From assembly GCF_007678455.1 (NCBI RefSeq), contig NZ_VEEP01000002.1, positions 43,535 through 107,534 of the forward strand: 64,000 nucleotides of DNA, written 5' to 3'. Positions 1 to 58,070 of the stretch are shown one piece after another (the first letter of the stretch is position 1; each line of letters begins with the position of its first letter). The notes below the pieces were generated by a model. That model saw only the letters and a program-made list of their open reading frames with translations, was not told the DNA's origin and ran no database searches. The translations under genes were made by a program, and so were the position numbers. The DNA comes from Cytobacillus oceanisediminis 2691 (GTDB lineage: Bacteria; Bacillota; Bacilli; Bacillales; Cytobacillaceae).

Positions 1-170
1 AGGGCACCTTTCTCTCCTTTTCGTACCCTTATACACGTGTTTCCCTTCCCATAAGGGCACCTTTCTCTCCTTTTCGTACCCTTATACACGTGTTTCCCTT
101 CCCATAAGGGCACCTTTCTCTCCTTTTCGTGCGCTTATACTGGAGTTTCCCTTCTCATAAGGGCACCTTT
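1..170. repeat. 53-bp tandem repeat array with inverted CCCTTAT/ATAAGGG arms
   Basis: AGGGCACCTTTCTCTCC begins at 1, 54, 107 and 160, an exact 53-bp period, and the array probably continues beyond the left edge. Inside each unit CCCTTAT is followed after about 18 bases by ATAAGGG, so each unit can form a hairpin. The same arm pair and period occur in the array at 25488-26450, although the spacer sequences differ. It lies just downstream of the acyl-CoA ligase that ends at 216. No coding potential is seen. Confidence 0.93.
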
Positions 171-4599: not shown

Positions 4600-4850
4600 A
4601 AGTTCCATTGGTGACCTATTCTTTCTCTTTTCTGCTGTTTTCAGGCGCCAATGGACCTCATTGGTGACCTGTCTTTCCTTTTTCTGCTGTTTTCGGGCAC
4701 CAATGGACCTTATTGGTGACCTCTTTTTCCTTTTTCTGCTGTTTTCGGGCGCCAATAGACCTCATTGGTGACCCTTTTCCCTTTTTCCGCTGTTTTCAGG
4801 CGCCAATAGACCTTATTGGTGACCTGTTTTTCTATTTTCTGTGAACTTCG
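4600..4850. repeat. 51-53-bp repeat array with CCAAT/ATTGG hairpins
   Basis: GTGACC recurs at 4611, 4664, 4716, 4768 and 4819, giving spacings of 53, 52, 52 and 51. Each unit carries CCAATGGACCTCATTGG or a close variant (arms CCAAT and ATTGG) and a pyrimidine-rich TTTCTGCTGTTTTC tract. The array fills the gap between the thiolase gene and the downstream ligase gene inside the catabolic block. The short open frames on both strands here are repeat artefacts. Confidence 0.93.
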
Positions 4851-9070: not shown

Positions 9071-9176
9071 ATTAGCGATTTTTTATTTTTATTGGCGGAG
9101 TTCACAACTTTATTGGCGATTTCCAAGATTTATTTGCGAACTGGAAAAAAACACGTGTTTTTTCCAGTTCGCAAAT
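9071..9176 (-). repeat. 20-21-bp repeat array with terminator-like hairpin leader
   Basis: On the minus strand the regulator's stop codon is followed by a long inverted repeat (9131-9176; arms TTTGCGAACTGG and CCAGTTCGCAAA around an A-run, CACGTG and T-run). TCGCCAATAAA-type units follow at 20-21-bp spacing (cores at 9071, 9091, 9112 and 9132). The hairpin probably terminates the regulator transcript. Leader and units match the arrays at 34331-34500 and 41468-41590 in the opposite orientation. Confidence 0.85.
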
Positions 9177-9182
9177 GACATG

Positions 9183-11231
9183 CTATACGCTCAGCTGGTA
9201 TTTCTTTATTTTTTCATATAATCCTGAACGGCTGATCCCCAAAAGTTTTGCTGCCTTTGCCTTGTTTCCGTTTGTCTGGGAGAGGGCCTTTCTGATCGCG
9301 CCAAGCTCGGCATCTTCTGCAAGGCTGATTTGTTCGATAAGTGGGCTGGATAGTTGCGACAGTAAGTAATCCGGCAGATCCTCTGACTGTATTTTCCCAT
9401 GCTCGGCAAAGGTCATTGCGCGCTCCAGGACATTCCGCAATTCACGCACATTGCCCGGCCATTCATAGCGAAGGAGTGCTGTTTTTGCCTGTGATGAGAT
9501 GCCGGTGATGCTCGTACCCAGCATGGAGTTCAATTCTTTCATTAATTCAGTAATCAAATACTCAACATCCTGAACGCGGTCCCTCAGCGGCGGAATATTC
9601 AAGGAAATGACATTCAGTCGGTAGTAAAGGTCTTCCCTGAACTCCCCCTGCCTTACCATCTCTTCCAGGTTACGGTTTGTCGCAGCGATAATACGGACAT
9701 CGACCTTCACGCGCACATTTCCGCCTACCCTGTAAAACTCTCGCTCCTGCAGGACTCTTAGCAGTTTGGCCTGAAGGGACAGAGACATATCGCCTATTTC
9801 ATCGAGGAAAAGCGTGCCTCCATTGGCAAGGTCGAACTTCCCAATCTTGCCGCGCTGTTTCGCCCCCGTAAAGGCACCTTCTTCATAACCGAAGAACTCG
9901 GATTCTAGCAGGTCTTCAGGGATGGCTGCGCAATTGACGACAACGAATTTCCCTTCACTTCGGGCACTGCTGTTATGGATGGCATGTGCGAACAATTCTT
10001 TCCCTGTACCACTTTCACCTCTAATCAATACAGTGGATCTGCCTTTCGCTGCTTTGGCTGCACTTTTCTTTAATTTTTCCATGTAAGAATCCTTGCTGAA
10101 AATATGGTCCCATGTGAACCTGGCCGACTCGGATTTCTGCAGCTGCTGGTGGTAAAAGCTTGCCTTGTTCTCGGCTTTTTGAAGTCGCTTGAACAACTCG
10201 CTGACCTCATTCAACTGGCGGAACATCACTTTGCCAATCGCTCCGATCACCTTGCCATCCTTCTTGATGGGAATTCGATGGACAATATATCGGATACCGT
10301 TCAACTCGTTAAAGTCGCTGACTTCCGCCATTTCCGACCGGAACACATTGCCAAGCTTCAGTTGCGGAAGGACTTGCTCGACTGGTTTATATAAAACTTC
10401 TGTTTTCTCCAGGTTGAACAGTTCGAGCAATGGCGGGCTGACCATGGTGATGATGTTTTTTTCGTCCGTCATCAGGATTCCATCATATGCATTCTCGAGT
10501 GTCGTCTCGATTGTCAGCTTAAGCTTTTTAACCGTCTCGAGTTCTTCTGCCATTTTTTCAAATTCAGAAATATCCTGGAATAACAGGATTTTCCCTTCTT
10601 CATGGTTCACTGTTTCATAGGAAGAGATATGAAGAATCGATTTAAATTTTTCATAATGATGAGGAGTGTCATCTCCATTCAGCAACCCAGGAAAAATATC
10701 GCCGAGCTTCCTGGATATAATTGAATCAAGAGTCCGTCCGCTGATTTTCGTAAAAGCTTCATTTGCATAAATCATCTGCATCCTGCCGTCAGTCATGAGC
10801 ACACCGATATTGGAGTGCTGAAGGATTGTTTCAAGTTGGTCCTTGAGGGTATTCGCAGATTTTAGCAAAGCGACCACCATTTCGGTCTTGGTCAGTAAAC
10901 CGATGACTTTATCCTGTTCATCCAGCACCACGCCGGTACCAACCTTGCTTGTTTTTACAATCTGCTCGATCTCGCGATAAGGAGTGTCGATTCGAATGGA
11001 TCTAGCTTCCTTCTTTATGTATGGAAGTATTGCCGTTTCAAGGGGACTGCCTTCAAGGATCATTTGATACAAGCCGCTGCGGGTAAAAACTCCCAGAAGG
11101 TTCTTTTCAGTATCAGTAACGGGCAGGAGATTCCATTTCTTCTCCCTGAAGATTTCCACTGCCTCCTGCAAAGTTGTTGTCTCTGTGACCAGACAGTCAA
11201 CAGGGGTGACGATATCCCTGAATTCAAGCAT
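9183..11231 (-). CDS. Sigma-54-dependent CBS-PAS-PAS-AAA+-Fis transcriptional activator
   Basis: Bacterial enhancer-binding protein that remodels sigma-54 RNA polymerase by ATP hydrolysis. The 682 residues show a CBS-domain pair (about 1-115), two PAS domains (about 125-225 and 235-350), and an AAA+ domain. The AAA+ domain has Walker A GESGTGKE near 407, the sigma-54 contact loop GAFTGA near 452 and Walker B GGTLFLDEIGD. A Fis-type helix-turn-helix lies at the C terminus (ISRSGLYEKIKKY). CBS pairs often bind adenine nucleotides and PAS domains small ligands, so an acyl-CoA, acid or energy signal is plausible but unproven. Both matching sigma-54 promoters in the window control beta-oxidation genes. 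The start is supported by a GGAGGGGGG ribosome site. Confidence 0.95.
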   Translation of the reverse strand: MLEFRDIVTPVDCLVTETTTLQEAVEIFREKKWNLLPVTDTEKNLLGVFTRSGLYQMILEGSPLETAILPYIKKEARSIRIDTPYREIEQIVKTSKVGTGVVLDEQDKVIGLLTKTEMVVALLKSANTLKDQLETILQHSNIGVLMTDGRMQMIYANEAFTKISGRTLDSIISRKLGDIFPGLLNGDDTPHHYEKFKSILHISSYETVNHEEGKILLFQDISEFEKMAEELETVKKLKLTIETTLENAYDGILMTDEKNIITMVSPPLLELFNLEKTEVLYKPVEQVLPQLKLGNVFRSEMAEVSDFNELNGIRYIVHRIPIKKDGKVIGAIGKVMFRQLNEVSELFKRLQKAENKASFYHQQLQKSESARFTWDHIFSKDSYMEKLKKSAAKAAKGRSTVLIRGESGTGKELFAHAIHNSSARSEGKFVVVNCAAIPEDLLESEFFGYEEGAFTGAKQRGKIGKFDLANGGTLFLDEIGDMSLSLQAKLLRVLQEREFYRVGGNVRVKVDVRIIAATNRNLEEMVRQGEFREDLYYRLNVISLNIPPLRDRVQDVEYLITELMKELNSMLGTSITGISSQAKTALLRYEWPGNVRELRNVLERAMTFAEHGKIQSEDLPDYLLSQLSSPLIEQISLAEDAELGAIRKALSQTNGNKAKAAKLLGISRSGLYEKIKKYQLSV

Positions 11232-14286: not shown

Positions 14287-14340
14287 AACCCGGTTGAAAC
14301 AAAATATATTCCCGGTTGGGGCAGATTTATTTCCGGTTGG
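14287..14340. repeat. Short 21-22-bp repeat, CCGGTTG units
   Basis: CGGTTG recurs at 14291, 14313 and 14334, each followed by an A/T-rich spacer. It lies in the 349-bp gap between the DMT transporter and the SDR promoter. Its unit sequence is unlike the other arrays but the period is close to the 20-21-bp class. Confidence 0.65.
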
Positions 14341-14387
14341 AACAAATGTTGTCTGCAAAACTAGTTATAAATAACAGTACCCCATGC

Positions 14388-15609: not shown

Positions 15610-16491
15610 ATGCACTTCCGACATTTAATCATTACTGGCTTTATTACTGGTATTGCTTTGTTGGTGCCAGACATGGTTTTTGCTGAAAAAGGGCCAAATG
15701 CCGGAAAAGGACAACAGCCTGCGGCGGCTGAGCAGGCTTCTGTGCCAGACAAGGCAGAGATTGCCAAGAACTCCGGAAAATCTCCTGCACAACCTGCGGT
15801 CAAAAACCAGCCGATTAAGAAAGAAATCGTCCAGAAACCTTTCCAGGCCAAGCCTAAAGAAAATCCGGCCGAGGCAGTGAAAATGAATGGGAATGCTTCA
15901 TCATTTAAGAAAAATGAGAAAGCAACACAGCCCAAAAACACCAATGCATCGAGGACCGGAAAAACTAATCAGGCGAAACATAAACAAAAGCCCAGCAATA
16001 ATCAAAACAAAAAAGGTGCGTTAAAATCCATACATAATGAAGATCAGTACGTGAAAGAAACAAAGCGTAAATCACCTGGTTTGGAGGAAAAGCTTGATCC
16101 TTCTAAGGAGTCTGCAGAGAAACCGTCCATAGTCAAAGTACCAGTAAAGACGGAAAGCAGAAAAATACCTCATGTGAAAAAGGATGAAAAGGATTCATCC
16201 CAAAACGAGAGGTATCCTAAAGGAGACAACCTGCCTAACCCTCCATCACGCACGAAGGCTTCAGGGGGGCCATCCGGCGACAGGACAAGTTATGGAAATT
16301 CGAACACCTTTTTAAGCGATAAATGGTTCATTTGGGATGAAACATTCCATTTAAGCCTCTTGCAGCCGTTTACGTCAAGGGTCGCTGTTTTTCAGAGCCA
16401 GTGGGTAAATGCCCCACCTTCCCCACCACCGTTAAAAGCTCCTGCTTTTTTACCGTATACCGACGCGATTGTCACGGATAACGTTAATTAA
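15610..16491 (+). CDS. Secreted lysine-rich low-complexity protein, unknown function
   Basis: About 293 residues. The signal peptide is MHFRHLIITGFITGIALLV with likely cleavage after VFA. A long disordered K/Q/P/N-rich body (such as KNQPIKKEIVQKPFQAKP) follows. The C-terminal 80 residues are more ordered, with FLSDKWFIWDETFHLSLL and a proline cluster APPSPPPLKAPAFLP. The strong AAAGGAGGTGAAAGG site fixes the start at 15610. The stop lies 13 bp before the acidic secreted protein gene, so the two are probably co-transcribed. The opposite charge of the pair suggests they may interact. I do not recognise a named family. Confidence 0.82.
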   Translation: MHFRHLIITGFITGIALLVPDMVFAEKGPNAGKGQQPAAAEQASVPDKAEIAKNSGKSPAQPAVKNQPIKKEIVQKPFQAKPKENPAEAVKMNGNASSFKKNEKATQPKNTNASRTGKTNQAKHKQKPSNNQNKKGALKSIHNEDQYVKETKRKSPGLEEKLDPSKESAEKPSIVKVPVKTESRKIPHVKKDEKDSSQNERYPKGDNLPNPPSRTKASGGPSGDRTSYGNSNTFLSDKWFIWDETFHLSLLQPFTSRVAVFQSQWVNAPPSPPPLKAPAFLPYTDAIVTDNVN

Positions 16492-16504
16492 AAGGGAGCG
16501 AATA

Positions 16505-18721
16505 ATGAAAATGAATAATTATATTAATGGAACTAAAGTTGTGAAGTCTTTTATGCTAGCTGGAGTATTGTCAATCGGAGTACTGACTGGAGGCCACTTC
16601 ACTCAGGCTGCCGGACCGGAAAAGGTAAAAGTTGAACAATCTCATAACAAACCAGCAAAGGTTCAGGTTGTTAATAAAAAGGCTAATGTAAAAGCAACTC
16701 CTGCTAAGCCTGCAGTTAAGACTCAGCCAAAAGCTGCTACAAACGGCGAAGCGAAGGAAAAAGCATCAAAGTCACAGGCTGGCATTCATGCAAGCGAAAC
16801 TGCCAAAAAGCATGCGGCTCCAAATGCAGCTGTACACACAACAACTCAACAAGCGCCTGTCGAAGATGTGAAAACTGAGGAAGTTCCAACAGAAGAAGCT
16901 GTTACTCAGGAACCTGTAGTGGAAGAAGTTGTAGAACTTGAGCCAATCATTACTGATGAAACAGAAGTTGACTCTGAATCTGAAGAAACTTCAGACACTG
17001 ATGCAGCTAAAGAAGACGAAGAGGAAATAAAGCCTAAAGCTGACACAGAAATGAAAAAGGAAGATGATGAGGATTCAGATGAAGATTCAGATGAAAATTC
17101 TGAAGAAGAGTCTAAAGACATCGACCTTGAGGCAAAAGCTACTGTAAAAACAGAAGATGATGAGGATAATGACTCCGATTCTGAAAATATCGATCTTGAT
17201 ACAGATGCAACTGTAAAGACTGAAGATGAAGATGAAGACGAAAATGACAACGAAGACAAAGATACGGAAGATAAGGTATCTCCATCTGTTGCCAACAAAA
17301 TGAAGTCTAAGGCTTTCAACGCAAGCGATGTCGCTAAAGAGAAAGCAAACGAAAATTCAGCTGTCGCGTTATCTGTTGAAGTGACTGAAGATGAGGTTAC
17401 TGAAGAAGTACCTACTGAAGAAGTTGTTACTGAAGATGAAGTGACTGAAGATGAAGTGACTGAAGATGAAGTGACTGAAGATGAAGTGACTGAAGACGAA
17501 GTGACTGAAGATGAAGTGACTGAAGATGAAGTGACTGAAGACGAAGTGACTGAAGACGAAGTGACTGAAGACGAAGTGACTGAAGACGAAGTGACTGAAG
17601 ACGAAGTTACTGAAGATGAAGTTACTGAAGAAGATGCTACTGAAGAAGATGTTACTGATGAAGTTGTTACTGATGAAGTTGTTACTGATGAAGTTGTTAC
17701 TGATGAAGAAGCTACTGAAGAAGATGCTACTGAAGATGATGCTACTGAAGAAGTAGTTACTGAAGAAGTAGTTACTGAAGAAGTAGTTACTGAAGAAGTA
17801 GTTACTGATGAAGAAGCAAAAGTATCTCCTTCTATTGCCAACAAAATGAAGTCTAAGGCTTTCAATGCCAGCGATGTTGCTAAAGAGAACGCTGACGAAA
17901 ACTCAGCTGTTGCTTTGTCTGTTGAAGTAACTGAAGATGAGGTTGCTGAAGACGAAGCTACTGAAGAAGTTGTTACTGAAGAAGTTGTTACTGAAGAAGC
18001 TGTTACTGAAGAAGTTGCTACTGAAGAAGTAGTTACTGATGAAGTTGTTACTGAAGAAGAAGCTGTTGATGAAGAAGCTACTGATGAAGAAGCTACTGAT
18101 GAAGAAGCTACTGAAGAAGTTGCTACTGAAGAAGTTGCTACTGAAGAAGTAGTTACTGATGAAGTTGTTACTGAAGAAGAAGCTGTTGATGAAGAAGCTA
18201 CTGATGAAGAAGCTACTGATGAAGAAGCTACTGAAGAAGATGCTACTGAAGAATATGCAAAAGTATCTCCTTCTATTGCCAACAAAATGAAGTCTAAGGC
18301 TTTCAACGCTAGCGATGTTGCTAAAGAGAAAGCTAACGAAAATTCAGCTGTTGCTTTGTCCGTTGAAGTAGCTGAAGAAGTTGTTACTGACGAAACTGCT
18401 ACTGAAGAAGTGACTGAGGAAGCTGTAACTGACGAAACTGCTACTGAAGAGGTAACTGAGGAAGTTGTTACTGATGAAACTGCTACTGAAGAAGTGACTG
18501 AGGAAGCTGTAACTGACGAAACTGCTACTGAAGAAGTGACTGAAGAAGTTGTTACTGACGAAACTGCTACTGAAGAGGTAACTGAGGAAGTAACTGAAGA
18601 GGCAAAAGTAAACCCATCTGCTGACAAAAAAGCTGAGTCAAAAGCTAGCTTATATGCAAGTGAAATCGCAAAGAAATTTGCTGCAATGCTTTCTGCTGTA
18701 CTTGCTGTTTTTGAGAAGTAG
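16505..18721 (+). CDS. Secreted highly acidic repeat protein
   Basis: About 738 residues, with a signal peptide ending near FTQA and a mature chain dominated by Glu, Asp, Thr and Val. Runs of VTEDE pentapeptides (15-bp repeats, about 17430-17640) and VTEEV/ATEE/VTDE variants are separated by a repeated module. The module, SPSxANKMKSKAFNASDVAKE followed by NENSAVALSVEV, occurs at about 17276-17385, 17822-17930 and 18263-18372. Degenerate forms are at the N terminus (SKSQAGIHASETAKKHA) and C terminus (SKASLYASEIAKKFA). No sortase motif or hydrolase domain is seen. It could be a cation-binding surface or matrix protein, which is inference. The AGGGAG site supports the ATG at 16505. Confidence 0.85.
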   Translation: MKMNNYINGTKVVKSFMLAGVLSIGVLTGGHFTQAAGPEKVKVEQSHNKPAKVQVVNKKANVKATPAKPAVKTQPKAATNGEAKEKASKSQAGIHASETAKKHAAPNAAVHTTTQQAPVEDVKTEEVPTEEAVTQEPVVEEVVELEPIITDETEVDSESEETSDTDAAKEDEEEIKPKADTEMKKEDDEDSDEDSDENSEEESKDIDLEAKATVKTEDDEDNDSDSENIDLDTDATVKTEDEDEDENDNEDKDTEDKVSPSVANKMKSKAFNASDVAKEKANENSAVALSVEVTEDEVTEEVPTEEVVTEDEVTEDEVTEDEVTEDEVTEDEVTEDEVTEDEVTEDEVTEDEVTEDEVTEDEVTEDEVTEDEVTEEDATEEDVTDEVVTDEVVTDEVVTDEEATEEDATEDDATEEVVTEEVVTEEVVTEEVVTDEEAKVSPSIANKMKSKAFNASDVAKENADENSAVALSVEVTEDEVAEDEATEEVVTEEVVTEEAVTEEVATEEVVTDEVVTEEEAVDEEATDEEATDEEATEEVATEEVATEEVVTDEVVTEEEAVDEEATDEEATDEEATEEDATEEYAKVSPSIANKMKSKAFNASDVAKEKANENSAVALSVEVAEEVVTDETATEEVTEEAVTDETATEEVTEEVVTDETATEEVTEEAVTDETATEEVTEEVVTDETATEEVTEEVTEEAKVNPSADKKAESKASLYASEIAKKFAAMLSAVLAVFEK
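17430..17640 (+). repeat. 15-bp coding tandem repeat (VTEDE units)
   Basis: About fourteen consecutive GTGACTGAAGAYGAA-type units inside the acidic protein gene. They differ mainly at synonymous third positions, the pattern expected of recent slippage expansion. Confidence 0.92.
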
Positions 18722-25384: not shown

Positions 25385-25405
25385 AAAACTAATATCATTA
25401 GTTTT
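25385..25405. promoter_or_regulatory. Putative TetR operator 1
   Basis: Perfect 9-bp inverted repeat AAAACTAAT-ATC-ATTAGTTTT just upstream of the MBL-hydrolase ATG. It overlaps the expected promoter and leader. Confidence 0.75.
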
Positions 25406-25408
25406 ATT

Positions 25409-25429
25409 TTAACTAATGCTGTTAGTTAA
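25409..25429. promoter_or_regulatory. Putative TetR operator 2
   Basis: Inverted repeat TTAACTAA-TGCTG-TTAGTTAA, with the same ACTAA/TTAGT half sites as operator 1 and centred 24 bp from it. Confidence 0.72.
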
Positions 25430-25487
25430 ATCAATCTTTATTTGGTAAAATATATAATTAGTAACCTTATGTGGATAGATTAACCTG

Positions 25488-26450
25488 CAGAAGGGGATCT
25501 CCCGGCCTGAATAGTACCCTTATGGGGACGGTTTCGCCTGCATAAGGGTATCTCCCGGTCTGATTGGTACCCTTATGGGGATGCTTTCGCCTGCATAAGG
25601 GTATCTACCGACCTGAATGGTACCCTTATGTGGACGGTTTTGACTGCATAAGGGTATCTACCGGCCTGAATAGTGCCCTTATGCGGATGCTTTTGCCTGC
25701 ATAAGGGTATCTACCGGCCTGAATAGTACCCTTATGGGGAGGGTTTCACCAGCATAAGGGTATCTCCTGGCCTGAATGATACCCTTATGGGGATGCTTTC
25801 GCCTGCATAAGGGTATCTACCGACCTGAATGGTACCCTTATGGGGAGGTTTTTGCCTGCATAAGGGTATCTACCGGCCTGAATGGTACCCTTATGGGGAC
25901 GGTTTTGACTGCATAAGGGTATCTACCGGCCTGAATAGTGCCCTTATGCGGATGCTTTTGCCTGCATAAGGGTATCTACCGGCCTGAATAGTACCCTTAT
26001 GGGGACGGTTTTGACTGCATAAGGGTATCTACCGGCCTGAATAGTGTCCTTATGCGGATGCTTTTGCCTGCATAAGGGTATCTACCGGCCTGAATAGTAC
26101 CCTTATGGGGACGGTTTTGACTGCATAAGGGTATCTCCCAATTAGAATGGTACCCTTATGGGGACGGTTTTGACTGCATAAGGGTATCTCCCAATTAGAA
26201 TGGTACCCTTATGTGGACGGGTTTGCCTGCATAAGGGTATCTCCCGGCCTGAATGGTACCCTTATGTGGACGGTTTTGACTGCATAAGGTTATCTCCCGG
26301 CCTGAATGGTACCCTTATGGGGATGCTTTCGCCTGCATAAGGGCATCTACCGGCCTGAATAGTACCCTTATGTGGACGGTTTTGACTGCATAAGGGTATC
26401 TCCCGATTTGAATAGTACCCTTCTGTGGATAGAGCAACCTACATAAGGAT
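25488..26450. repeat. 53-bp tandem array of ATAAGGGTA/TACCCTTAT arms (about 19 units)
   Basis: ATAAGGG recurs every 53 bp from 25541 to about 26441 (18 copies, the last degenerate), with another degenerate copy at the left edge. In every unit TACCCTTATG pairs with the following GCATAAGGGTA, so 10-bp arms flank a 15-17-nt spacer such as GGGACGGTTTTGACT. The other spacer (TCTACCGGCCTGAATAG) is about 17 nt. Unit variants alternate (TTTTGACT or TTTCGCCT), suggesting some duplications in blocks of two. It fills the 1.1-kb gap between the MBL/TetR operon and the amino acid transporter. No gene is seen inside. Confidence 0.97.
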
Positions 26451-34330: not shown

Positions 34331-34500
34331 AACTGGAAAAAATCGCACAGAATTTCTAGTTCGCTATAAAAATTAGAATCTCGCTATATAATCGATAAAG
34401 TCGCTATATAATTGGAAAACTCGCTATATAATCGAAAAAGTCGCTATATAATTGGAAAACTCGCTATATAATCGAAAAAGTCGCTAAAAAAGTCGTTATA
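34331..34500 (+). repeat. 20-bp tandem array TCGCTATATAAT with hairpin leader
   Basis: The leader AACTGGAAA...TTTCTAGTT (34331-34360) is followed by TCGCTATA units starting at 34361, 34381, 34401, 34421, 34441 and 34461, then degenerate units. The period is exactly 20 bp. Spacers CGAAAAAG and TGGAAAAC alternate from 34401 onward, giving a 40-bp super-period. It lies inside the transporter operon. Confidence 0.95.
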
Positions 34501-35730: not shown

Positions 35731-35835
35731 CTCTTATCTTCCAAAACATATCGTTTTGCAGGATTTAGCACCAATTCCTGATGGAACGGTTGCCGGGCGT
35801 CATAGGGCCAGTCCCTCTGCCACTCTTGATAAGAG
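35731..35835 (-). promoter_or_regulatory. SAM-I (S-box) riboswitch aptamer
   Basis: The minus strand has the S-box hallmarks in order. P1 is CTCTTATC at 35828-35835, paired with GATAAGAG at 35731-35738. Then come the AAGAGTGGCAGAGGGA box, CTGGCCCTATGACGCCCGGC, CAACC, the GGTGCTAAATCCTGC segment and the closing P1 strand. Binding of SAM should favour the downstream terminator and switch the transporter off. Confidence 0.95.
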
Positions 35836-41467: not shown

Positions 41468-41590
41468 AATGGAAAAAATCGCTGATTATTTCCAGTTCGC
41501 CAATAACCATGTGGTTTTCGCCAATAAAATCAAATTCTCGCCAATAAACCTGTGAAAAGCGCCAATAAAATTGGATTATCGCCAATATCG
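41468..41590 (+). repeat. 20-21-bp array CGCCAATAAA with hairpin leader
   Basis: The leader TGGAAAAAATCGC...TTTCCAGTTCGC is followed by CGCCAATA units at 41498, 41519, 41539, 41560 and 41580 (spacings 21, 20, 21, 20). The leader is homologous to that at 34331-34360 and to the reverse complement of 9131-9176. It lies inside the redox operon. Confidence 0.93.
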
Positions 41591-45710: not shown

Positions 45711-45804
45711 CCATCATGAGTGGACACAAAATCGTAATAAATTTGTGCGGTAGTTAACAATCTGGCAGTCCCCCCCTCTCTTTAAGTAGACTTTGTAGCC
45801 TGTA

Positions 45805-46012
45805 TTTGACGATAATTAATGGTTCCATTGATTTATCCGCACATTATCTCCTTTTATGTGACGATAATTGATGGACACCCTGATTTATCCGCACATTTTC
45901 TCCTTTTATGTGACGATAATTGATGGACACCCTGATTTATCCGCACATTTTCTCCTTTTATGTGACGATAATCGGTGGTTCCCTTGATTTATCCGCACAT
46001 TATTGTTTTATG
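45805..46012. repeat. 52-bp tandem array, GACGATAAT/ATTTATCCGCACAT units
   Basis: GACGATAAT begins at 45808, 45860, 45912 and 45964, exactly 52 bp apart. The arms TTATCCGCACAT and ATGTGACGATAA are near-complementary (10 of 12), separated by TTTTCTCCTTTT-like spacers. It lies in the 0.67-kb gap between the divergent redox operon and the AcuI-like gene. Confidence 0.95.
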
Positions 46013-57290: not shown

Positions 57291-58070
57291 TTTGACAACT
57301 TTAACCTGTTTGCCTTCGTACCTGTCAAAATAACGACGGGTTCTTGACAGCTTTTCTCTACTTCACCTCAGACCTGTCAAAATAACGACCGATTCTTGAC
57401 AGCTTTCTCCTGCTTCTCTTCTAACCTGTCAAAATAACGGCGGGTTCTTGACAGCTTTTCTCTACTTCACCTCAAACCTGTCAAAATTACGGCTGTTTCT
57501 TGACAGCTTTACCGTACTTCCCCTCGAACCTGTCAAAATAACGACGGGTTCTTGACAGCTTTTCTCTACTTCACCTCGAACCTGTCAAAATAACGACCGA
57601 TTCTTGACAGCTTTTCTCTACTTCACCTCAAACCTGTCAAAATTACGGCTGTTTCTTGACAGCTTTACCGTACTTCCCCTCAAACCTGTCAAAATTACGG
57701 CTGTTTCTTGACAGCTTTACCGTACTTCCCCTCAAACCTGTCAAAATAACGGCGGGTTCTTGACAGCTTTTCTCTACTTCACCTCAGACCTGTCAAAATA
57801 ACGACCGATTCTTGACAGCTTTTCTCTACTTCACCTCAGACCTGTCAAAATAACGACTGATTCTTGACAGCTTTCTCCTGCTTCTCTTCTAACCTGTCAA
57901 AATAACGACTGATTCTTGACAGCTTTCTCCTGCTTCTCTTCTAACCTGTCAAAATAACGACTGATTCTTGACAGCTTTCATATGTTACACTTCAAACCTG
58001 TCAAGATAACAACGGATTCTTGACAGCTTTCTCCTATTACACTTTAAACCTGTCAAAATAACGGAAAATT
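57291..58070. repeat. 52-bp tandem array with CTGTCAA/TTGACAG arms (15 units)
   Basis: CCTGTCAA recurs about every 52 bp from 57321 to about 58048, with 15 copies counted. In each unit CTGTCAA is followed after 15 nt by TTGACAG and after another 23 nt by the next CTGTCAA, so every arm can pair left or right. Internal variants (AACGACGGG, AACGACCGA, TTACGGCTG) recur in blocks. It occupies nearly all of the 1-kb gap between glnS and the GNAT gene, with no coding sequence seen. Confidence 0.97.

What the first reader, a model, noticed from the sequence alone, without database searches (positions are those of the whole stretch)
25488..26450. Intergenic arrays of unrelated sequence share a 51-53 bp period and alternating inverted arms
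Seen directly: five arrays (1-170, about 4600-4850, 25488-26450, 45805-46012, 57291-58070) have different unit sequences but near-constant spacing. Each is built so that an arm and its complement alternate along the DNA (ATAAGGGTA/TACCCTTAT, CTGTCAA/TTGACAG, CCAAT/ATTGG, TTATCnGCACAT/ATGTGACGATAA). A constant period with a changing sequence suggests selection on geometry (about five helical turns, or a hairpin-spacer-hairpin chain) rather than one mobile repeat. Each arm can pair left or right, so the RNA or supercoiled DNA has two alternative folds. Possible roles are DNA-binding platform, transcription insulation or supercoil absorption. All are inference.
Basis: partly seen in the sequence, partly recalled or inferred. 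Interest (0 to 1): 0.88.

Follow-up and report, generated by a model that had tools for sequence, protein, structure and literature searches.

The report
Constant-length intergenic repeat ladders in Mesobacillus
Between the genes of this bacterium lie rows of short DNA repeats whose letters change from place to place and species to species while the repeat length stays at 52-53 bases; the class is already published without a known function, and the new part here is that rows keep their positions across relatives while their sequence, and at one place even their length class, is replaced.

Summary
Tandem Repeats Finder finds all five arrays, period 52 or 53, in a Mesobacillus-like genome. They belong to a published, unexplained class: Bacillus tandem repeats of constant 52 nt or 20-21 nt with variable sequence (Subirana & Messeguer 2021, PMC8161180), which names species of this genus. 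Not all five are unrelated: 1-170 and 25459-26429 are one family.
New here: (1) arrays occupy 9 of 48 gene gaps compared over up to 14 genomes and stay there while units are rewritten; at the focal site 3 genomes have 53-bp arrays and 9 have 21-bp arrays. (2) Arms are better conserved than spacers; arm spacing and period hardly vary. (3) Arms carry fixed mismatches and no compensatory change, which speaks against selection for pairing, although 52-class arrays do fold strongly. (4) Most 20-bp arrays inspected share a 33-34-bp palindromic cap. (5) Length changes are rarer than substitutions predict.
Most likely: helically phased rows of half-sites for a cooperatively binding chromosomal protein. 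Binder and function are unproven. Gene-orientation rules failed.

The parts
25459..26429 (+). Focal F1 array, 18.3 units of 53 bp: GAATNGTACCCTTATG-N16-CATAAGGGTATCTNNC-N5; end units degenerate
1..170 (.). F1-type array, 53 bp, 3.2 units (cut by window edge); same family as the focal array
4606..4841 (.). F3 array, 52 bp, arms ATTGG/CCAAT, between a thiolase gene and an AMP-binding (acyl-CoA synthetase-type) gene; site occupied in 7 of 10 genomes
45803..46003 (.). F4 array, 52 bp, arms ATGTGACGATAA/TTATCCGCACAT, divergent gene pair; site occupied in 4 of 14 genomes
57320..58063 (+). F2 array, 52 bp, arms AACCTGTC/GACAGCTTT, after a tRNA-synt_1c (E/Q class) synthetase gene; site occupied in 13 of 13 genomes with both flanks mapped
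34361..34486 (+). 20-bp array TCGCTATA..., second class (20-21 bp); unit core is TCGCCAATA in four relatives
34331..34364 (+). 34-bp palindromic cap AACTGGAAA...TTTCTAGTTCGC at one end of the 20-bp array
41497..41587 (+). 20-bp array TCGCCAATAAA..., unit core is TCGCTATA in two relatives
9088..9139 (-). short 20-bp array TTTATTGGCGA...
14289..14346 (.). degenerate 21-bp array; site occupied in 10 of 12 genomes

Best explanation
The arrays are members of the published constant-length tandem repeat class of Bacillus. I read them as DNA-level ladders: each 52-53-bp unit carries, in the families with clear arms, two short, related but non-identical half-sites in inverted order, repeated every 5 helical turns; the sister class carries one site every 2 turns (20-21 bp), often behind a palindromic cap. 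Successive units thus present the same face of the helix, so that a chromosomal DNA-binding protein could bind cooperatively and build a filament or bridged complex at chosen intergenic sites, acting as a local nucleoid or transcription-boundary element. Shown: period, fixed spacing, conserved arms, fixed arm mismatches, deficit of length changes, retention of sites across relatives with replacement of units and at one site of the length class, cap. Inferred: the protein, cooperative binding, helical phasing as the reason for the length, and the boundary or nucleoid role.
For: Period 52/53 in several families of one genome; F1 53 and F2 52 each held at many loci. Length change in 19 of 421 neighbour steps against 2786 substitutions, while array-free intergenic DNA has 0.09-0.18 indels per substitution. 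Arms more conserved than spacers, with core spacing exact in 383 of 407 (F1; each unit read on both strands) and 105 of 106 (F2). Site retention: 13/13, 13/14, 12/13, 11/12, 10/12 at five sites. Length-class difference at the focal site. Steps counted in 20-bp ladders behind caps: 20 (163) or 21 (64), with 19 and 22 also allowed by the script; cap 34 bp in 86 and 33 bp in 4 of 90 hits. Arms not selected as pairs. The inverted pair TGTC/GACA occurs in 9 of 35 unit families of several species; shuffles reach at most 4 for this pair and 6 for any pair.
Against: No binding protein is known or was sought. The distance between arms inside a unit differs between families (loops 15/15, 11/17, 9/25; 16/5 in F1), so two rigidly spaced half-sites cannot be a general rule, and 8 of 15 clusters show no significant arms. 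Only lengths near 2 and 5 turns occur, which phasing alone does not explain. Site retention can also be simple descent. 52-class arrays fold strongly as RNA, and their transcripts have been reported in B. coagulans (PMC8625621, passages). The indel test leans on TRF, which favours regular arrays. The length-class difference is seen at one site.
Confidence: 0.45

Rival explanations
1. Neutral satellites: arrays arose once per family, spread by recombination, and evolve by unequal exchange; length is constant because units are copied whole, and sites persist by descent.
For: End units are more degenerate than inner ones (0.80 v 0.85-0.90); within-array identity 0.82 v 0.65 between species at one site, i.e. 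concerted evolution; F1 and F2 are dispersed families.
Against: Arms stay conserved while spacers diverge; indel deficit; several unrelated families share the same period here and, in print, in many species (PMC8161180); the focal site has an array of one class or the other in 12 of 13 genomes.
Confidence: 0.25
2. RNA or hairpin elements like REP/BIME: the arrays act in transcripts as hairpins that block exonucleases, tune expression between operon genes or terminate transcription.
For: 31 of 40 arrays of the 52 class have fold z<-2 on both strands. Two window sites lie between same-strand genes with no terminator-like hairpin found before the array (34361 and 4606). Published RNA-seq reads from 52-nt repeats in B. 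coagulans (PMC8625621, passages).
Against: No compensatory changes at variable arm pairs and fixed mismatches; F1 polarity shows no rule against gene direction (own 7 opposite, 1 same; G121 4 opposite, 7 same); 28 of 46 gene ends facing a 52-class array have a terminator-like hairpin before it (background 187 of 370, so not distinctive; my finder misses long-loop ones); the 21-bp class does not fold (0 of 7 tested).
Confidence: 0.2
3. A molecular ruler: an enzyme that copies or integrates units of fixed size (CRISPR-adaptation-like) makes the arrays, and length reflects that machine and not use.
For: Constant length with changing sequence; polar cap, with no cap found to have ladders on both sides; cap itself of near-constant length with a variable middle.
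Against: Spacers are similar within an array, not unique; end units are degenerate, unlike one growing end; no such enzyme gene was met, but none was searched for.
Confidence: 0.08

Closest known systems
Constant-size 52-nt and 20-21-nt tandem repeats of Bacillus (Subirana & Messeguer 2021, PMC8161180, whole main text read, supplements not; their 2020 J Bacteriol paper PMC7549362 not held)
   Same: 51-53 nt and 20-21 nt periods, several sequence families per genome, non-coding, short signals and their reverse in one repeat, selenatarsenatis/boroniphilus/subterraneus named
   Different: Its main text reports partial conservation between strains; it does not report site retention across species with unit and class replacement, fixed arm mismatches, the cap, or the recurrent TGTC/GACA arm pair
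REP/BIME elements (features recalled)
   Same: Dispersed intergenic inverted motifs in alternating orientation
   Different: Exact 52-53 bp period in long tandem arrays, many unit families, no pairing covariation
CRISPR arrays (features recalled)
   Same: Short repeats at constant spacing
   Different: Spacers repeated with variation, not unique; dozens of loci per genome
Plasmid centromere iterons such as parC of pSK41 (recalled, no call)
   Same: Helically phased tandem sites for a cooperatively binding protein, about 20 bp
   Different: Chromosomal, many loci, no partition protein shown

Membership tests
52-nt constant-length tandem repeats (PMC8161180) | repeat length 51-53 nt, at least 4 repeats | tested here: met
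   all five have period 52-53; three have >=4 units (4.5, 18.3, 14.3), the others 3.9, and 3.2 cut by the window edge
52-nt constant-length tandem repeats (PMC8161180) | several families of different sequence and equal length in one genome | tested here: met
52-nt constant-length tandem repeats (PMC8161180) | non-coding | tested here: met
   one array (L084 17755) fell inside a doubtful ORF but not
52-nt constant-length tandem repeats (PMC8161180) | short signals and, often, their reverse in the same repeat | tested here: met
   significant in 7 of 15 clusters
52-nt constant-length tandem repeats (PMC8161180) | transcribed (reported for B. coagulans) | not testable with these tools
   no RNA-seq
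20-21-nt constant-length tandem repeats (PMC8161180) | 20-21 nt period with one short signal kept in the units | tested here: met
REP/BIME | hairpin maintained by compensatory change (recalled criterion) | tested here: not met
   F1 160 oriented units, no pair beyond shuffles; F2 14 genomes, fixed C-C mismatch
REP/BIME | associated RAYT transposase gene | not tested
   no search made
CRISPR | unique spacers between identical repeats | tested here: not met
   spacers recur within arrays
CRISPR | cas genes | not tested
   no cas search made

The most novel reading that the evidence does not exclude
Two interchangeable kinds of helically phased DNA ladder (2-turn with a palindromic nucleation cap, 5-turn with paired half-sites) mark fixed intergenic boundaries of the Mesobacillus chromosome, and one cooperative protein, or a fast co-evolving family of them, reads the spacing more than the letters, so that ladders are rewritten without losing their site.
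Probability: 0.2. Interest if true: 0.85.

Novelty: new member of a known kind. Interest (0 to 1): 0.52.

Why it matters
The class was reported in print with a strict length and no settled explanation. Site retention with replacement of units, conserved half-sites with fixed mismatches, and a cap element give concrete, testable handles: a bait for protein pull-down, a deletable site occupied in all 13 genomes with both flanks mapped, and a spacing mutant that separates letters from geometry. If the ladders bind one protein, bacteria have a satellite-like system in which length is read before sequence.

Tried and rejected
Gene-orientation rule: the window alone suggested no convergent sites, and own-genome F1 arrays ran opposite to genes (10:1, non-independent rows included; 7:1), but G121 gave 4:7 and convergent arrays exist (9 of 37; background gaps 96 of 610), so I dropped it. 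The last tally lumped 'conv' with 'co'; I use. Replication-strand polarity: confounded with gene direction, lists cut, not resolved. Terminator adjacency: 28 of 46 v 187 of 370, not distinctive. A leader shared by F1 arrays: none seen, the commonest 10-mer in the flanks occurs at 3 loci. G.U strand test for RNA: G.T exceeds A.C at outer1 (54 v 8) and outer2 (23 v 8) but the reverse holds elsewhere (outer4 A.C 31, G.T 2; inner1 21 v 11), so undecided. Mobile carriage: the focal array finds no record in the plasmid and phage collections. The 42-bp repeat of gene 16469-18721, scored as '21' at a convergent gap, is coding and was dropped. The own 9088-9139 array (score 58) was listed in neither nor. 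21-bp arrays between genes 12 and 13 of G115, G028, G003 and G112 lie in gaps over 2.5 kb and were left out. Orthology of G121 F1 loci by two-sided blastn mostly failed because array DNA itself matched; one case, L138 14887, has an array-free gap in the own genome. Cohnella 51-bp arrays (L040, L044, L047) have open frames and may be coding. In the shuffles arrays of both orientations were mixed, so I repeated them on the oriented set. In one search I missed the cap of the L095 array, seen.

Full report
Setting. The window lies in contig C221 of a 4.9-Mb assembly. Its nearest named relatives are Mesobacillus records. Genes are conserved in order across the genus members compared.

Observation. 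TRF confirms five arrays of period 52 or 53. They sit between ORFs. In 20 other stretches of the genome the non-coding periods are 52 or 53, or 20-21 and its double, plus multiples and a few two-copy matches. Ten of the 20 stretches were picked without knowledge of arrays (4 arrays of the 52 class in 200 kb); ten were picked because F1 had hit there. Among the 57 loci, which were found by a protein and not by arrays, 52-bp arrays also occur in L034 (uncultured Bacillaceae) and L045 (Bacillus litorisediminis); 51-bp arrays in three Cohnella loci have open frames and may be coding.

Prior knowledge. The class is published: PMC8161180 (whole main text) reports tandem repeats of constant 52 or 20-21 nt and variable sequence in Bacillus, short signals and often their reverse in the same repeat, and species of this genus. 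It leaves function open: a nucleoid protein platform or small RNA. PMC8625621 (passages) reports RNA-seq reads from them in B. coagulans. The 2020 source paper was not held. PMC6749651 was seen in a listing only. So the core of the finding is known.

Families. The five window arrays are four families. F1 (53 bp) has 62 matches at 13 places; F2 (52 bp) 154 matches at 34 or more places, the list being cut. The exact F1 pattern occurs in 16 of 21 genomes of the genus and, once each, in 6 of 130 other genomes of the family.

F1 anatomy. Fifteen arrays (18 bins, three arrays being split; one is the G085 ortholog of the focal array) oriented alike share GAATGGTACCCTTATG-N16-CATAAGGGTATCTTTC-N5. Core spacing is 25 in 383 of 407 pairs, counting both strands. 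Arm columns average 0.94-0.95 conservation over 16 bins (14 arrays) against 0.65 for the 16-nt spacer. The two arms differ at fixed places: the set was oriented by outer position 3 (G facing T), and position 5 is then T facing T in 135 of 160 units. Unoriented, Watson-Crick pairs at these two positions are 28 and 25 of 192 against 92.5 and 94.4 in shuffles. On the oriented 160 units no arm pair is better paired than shuffles; the best is outer6, 99 v 96.6, reached by 102 of 500. F2 beside the tRNA-synthetase gene behaves alike: AACCTGTC holds in the consensus of all 14 genomes listed and GACAGCTTT in 13 (G127 differs by one letter), with a C facing a C in all 14, while two different spacer types occur; offset 24 in 105 of 106, period 52 in 106 of 110. 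Pairing is therefore not what is kept; two non-identical half-sites are. Avoidance of perfect hairpins could also explain the mismatches (inference).

Folding. Against that stands that 52-class arrays fold: 31 of 40 with z<-2 on both strands, median -4.5; the 20-21 class 0 of 7 tested.

Length. Between neighbours 402 of 421 steps equal the period, 19 do not and 3 more steps were unclear, with 2786 substitutions in the equal steps; array-free intergenic DNA between relatives has 0.09-0.18 indels per substitution. The deficit remains several-fold if each substitution is taken as counted twice, but TRF selection of regular arrays biases it.

Sites. I mapped window genes on 13 relatives. Of 48 gene gaps, 9 carry an array in some genome; a tenth, the convergent gap 11|12, is a coding repeat and was dropped. 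Occupancy: 45|46 13 of 13; 31|32 13 of 14; 18|19 12 of 13; 26|27 11 of 12; 8|9 10 of 12; 2|3 7 of 10; 5|6 6 of 10, where the own 9088 array fell below the cut; 34|35 4 of 14; 15|16 1 of 12. At the focal site 18|19, G000, G085 and G057 have F1 while G078, G115, G121, G028, G127, G112, G091, G108 and G096 have 21-bp arrays; G003 keeps about two degenerate 21-bp units by eye, and G000 and G057 a possible remnant (ACGGTTAAAAA). At 31|32 the unit core TCGCCAATA is TCGCTATA in G057 and G127; at 26|27 TCGCTATA is TCGCCAATA in G028, G003, G108 and G096; the period stays near 20. Descent can explain retention; it does not by itself explain replacement at the same place.

Cap. Eight of eleven 20-bp arrays inspected in the own genome begin with a palindrome AACTGGAAAAAA-N-ATTTCCAGTTCGC (some copies degenerate) that runs into the first unit; one more (L082 13007) has a partial copy and two (L078, L083) have none; the L095 array, with cap and a third unit core TTCGCGGAAT, was recognised only. 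The exact pattern occurs in 20 of 21 genomes of the genus and in none of 130 others. Of 90 cap hits, orthologs and both readings of full palindromes included, 86 are 34 bp and 4 are 33; 56 are followed by a counted ladder of two or more units. Of the 34 without, 22 are the opposite reading of a cap with a ladder; of the other 12, those printed include caps followed by degenerate or variant units, and four (L171, L178) I did not inspect. No cap has ladders on both sides. Counted steps are 20 (163) or 21 (64). F1 arrays share no such cap.

Across species. Some of these families are related, so independent cases are fewer, about six by my reading.

Context. In 37 arrays of the 52 class with both flanks known, 25 lie between co-directional, 9 convergent and 3 divergent genes; gene gaps overall are 415, 96, 99 of 610 (the G121 loci were chosen for F1, and genes are called by my own script). 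F1 polarity against genes: own 7 opposite, 1 same; G121 4 opposite, 7 same. Hence no orientation rule.

Reading. What both classes share is not folding but a site repeated near whole helical turns (2 x 10.5 = 21, 5 x 10.5 = 52.5; inference). The likeliest use is a ladder for a cooperative DNA-binding protein; boundary or nucleoid function is inferred. Neutral satellite evolution, RNA hairpins and a copying ruler remain open, in that order.

Noticed in passing
window 35731-35835 (-): SAM riboswitch (RF00162, 97.7 bits) ahead of a gene with weak similarity to RbsB; a 20-bp array sits between this gene and the following RbsA-like ATPase gene.
   Followed up: no
window 25385-25428: Two AAAACTAAT..ATTAGTT palindromes just ahead of the MBL-fold gene; similar 24-bp repeats stand at that position in several Paenibacillus and Cohnella loci, an ordinary operator by the look.
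   Followed up: no
window 16469-18721: Gene with 15- and 42-bp coding repeats whose copy number varies between relatives.
   Followed up: no
window 9136-9172; L082 5231; L165, L166: 20-bp array caps lie next to the end of genes whose C-terminus looks like a sigma-54 activator (window gene 9183-11231, below the model's cut-off; the others by eye).
   Followed up: partly
G085 versus G000, sites 18|19 and 26|27: Copy number differs by two units within one species (18.3 v 16.3 and 5.3 v 3.3 units).
   Followed up: no
L021: The record titled Chryseobacterium sp. ISL-80 holds Mesobacillus-like sequence (92% MBL protein, F1 array); the title is probably wrong.
   Followed up: no
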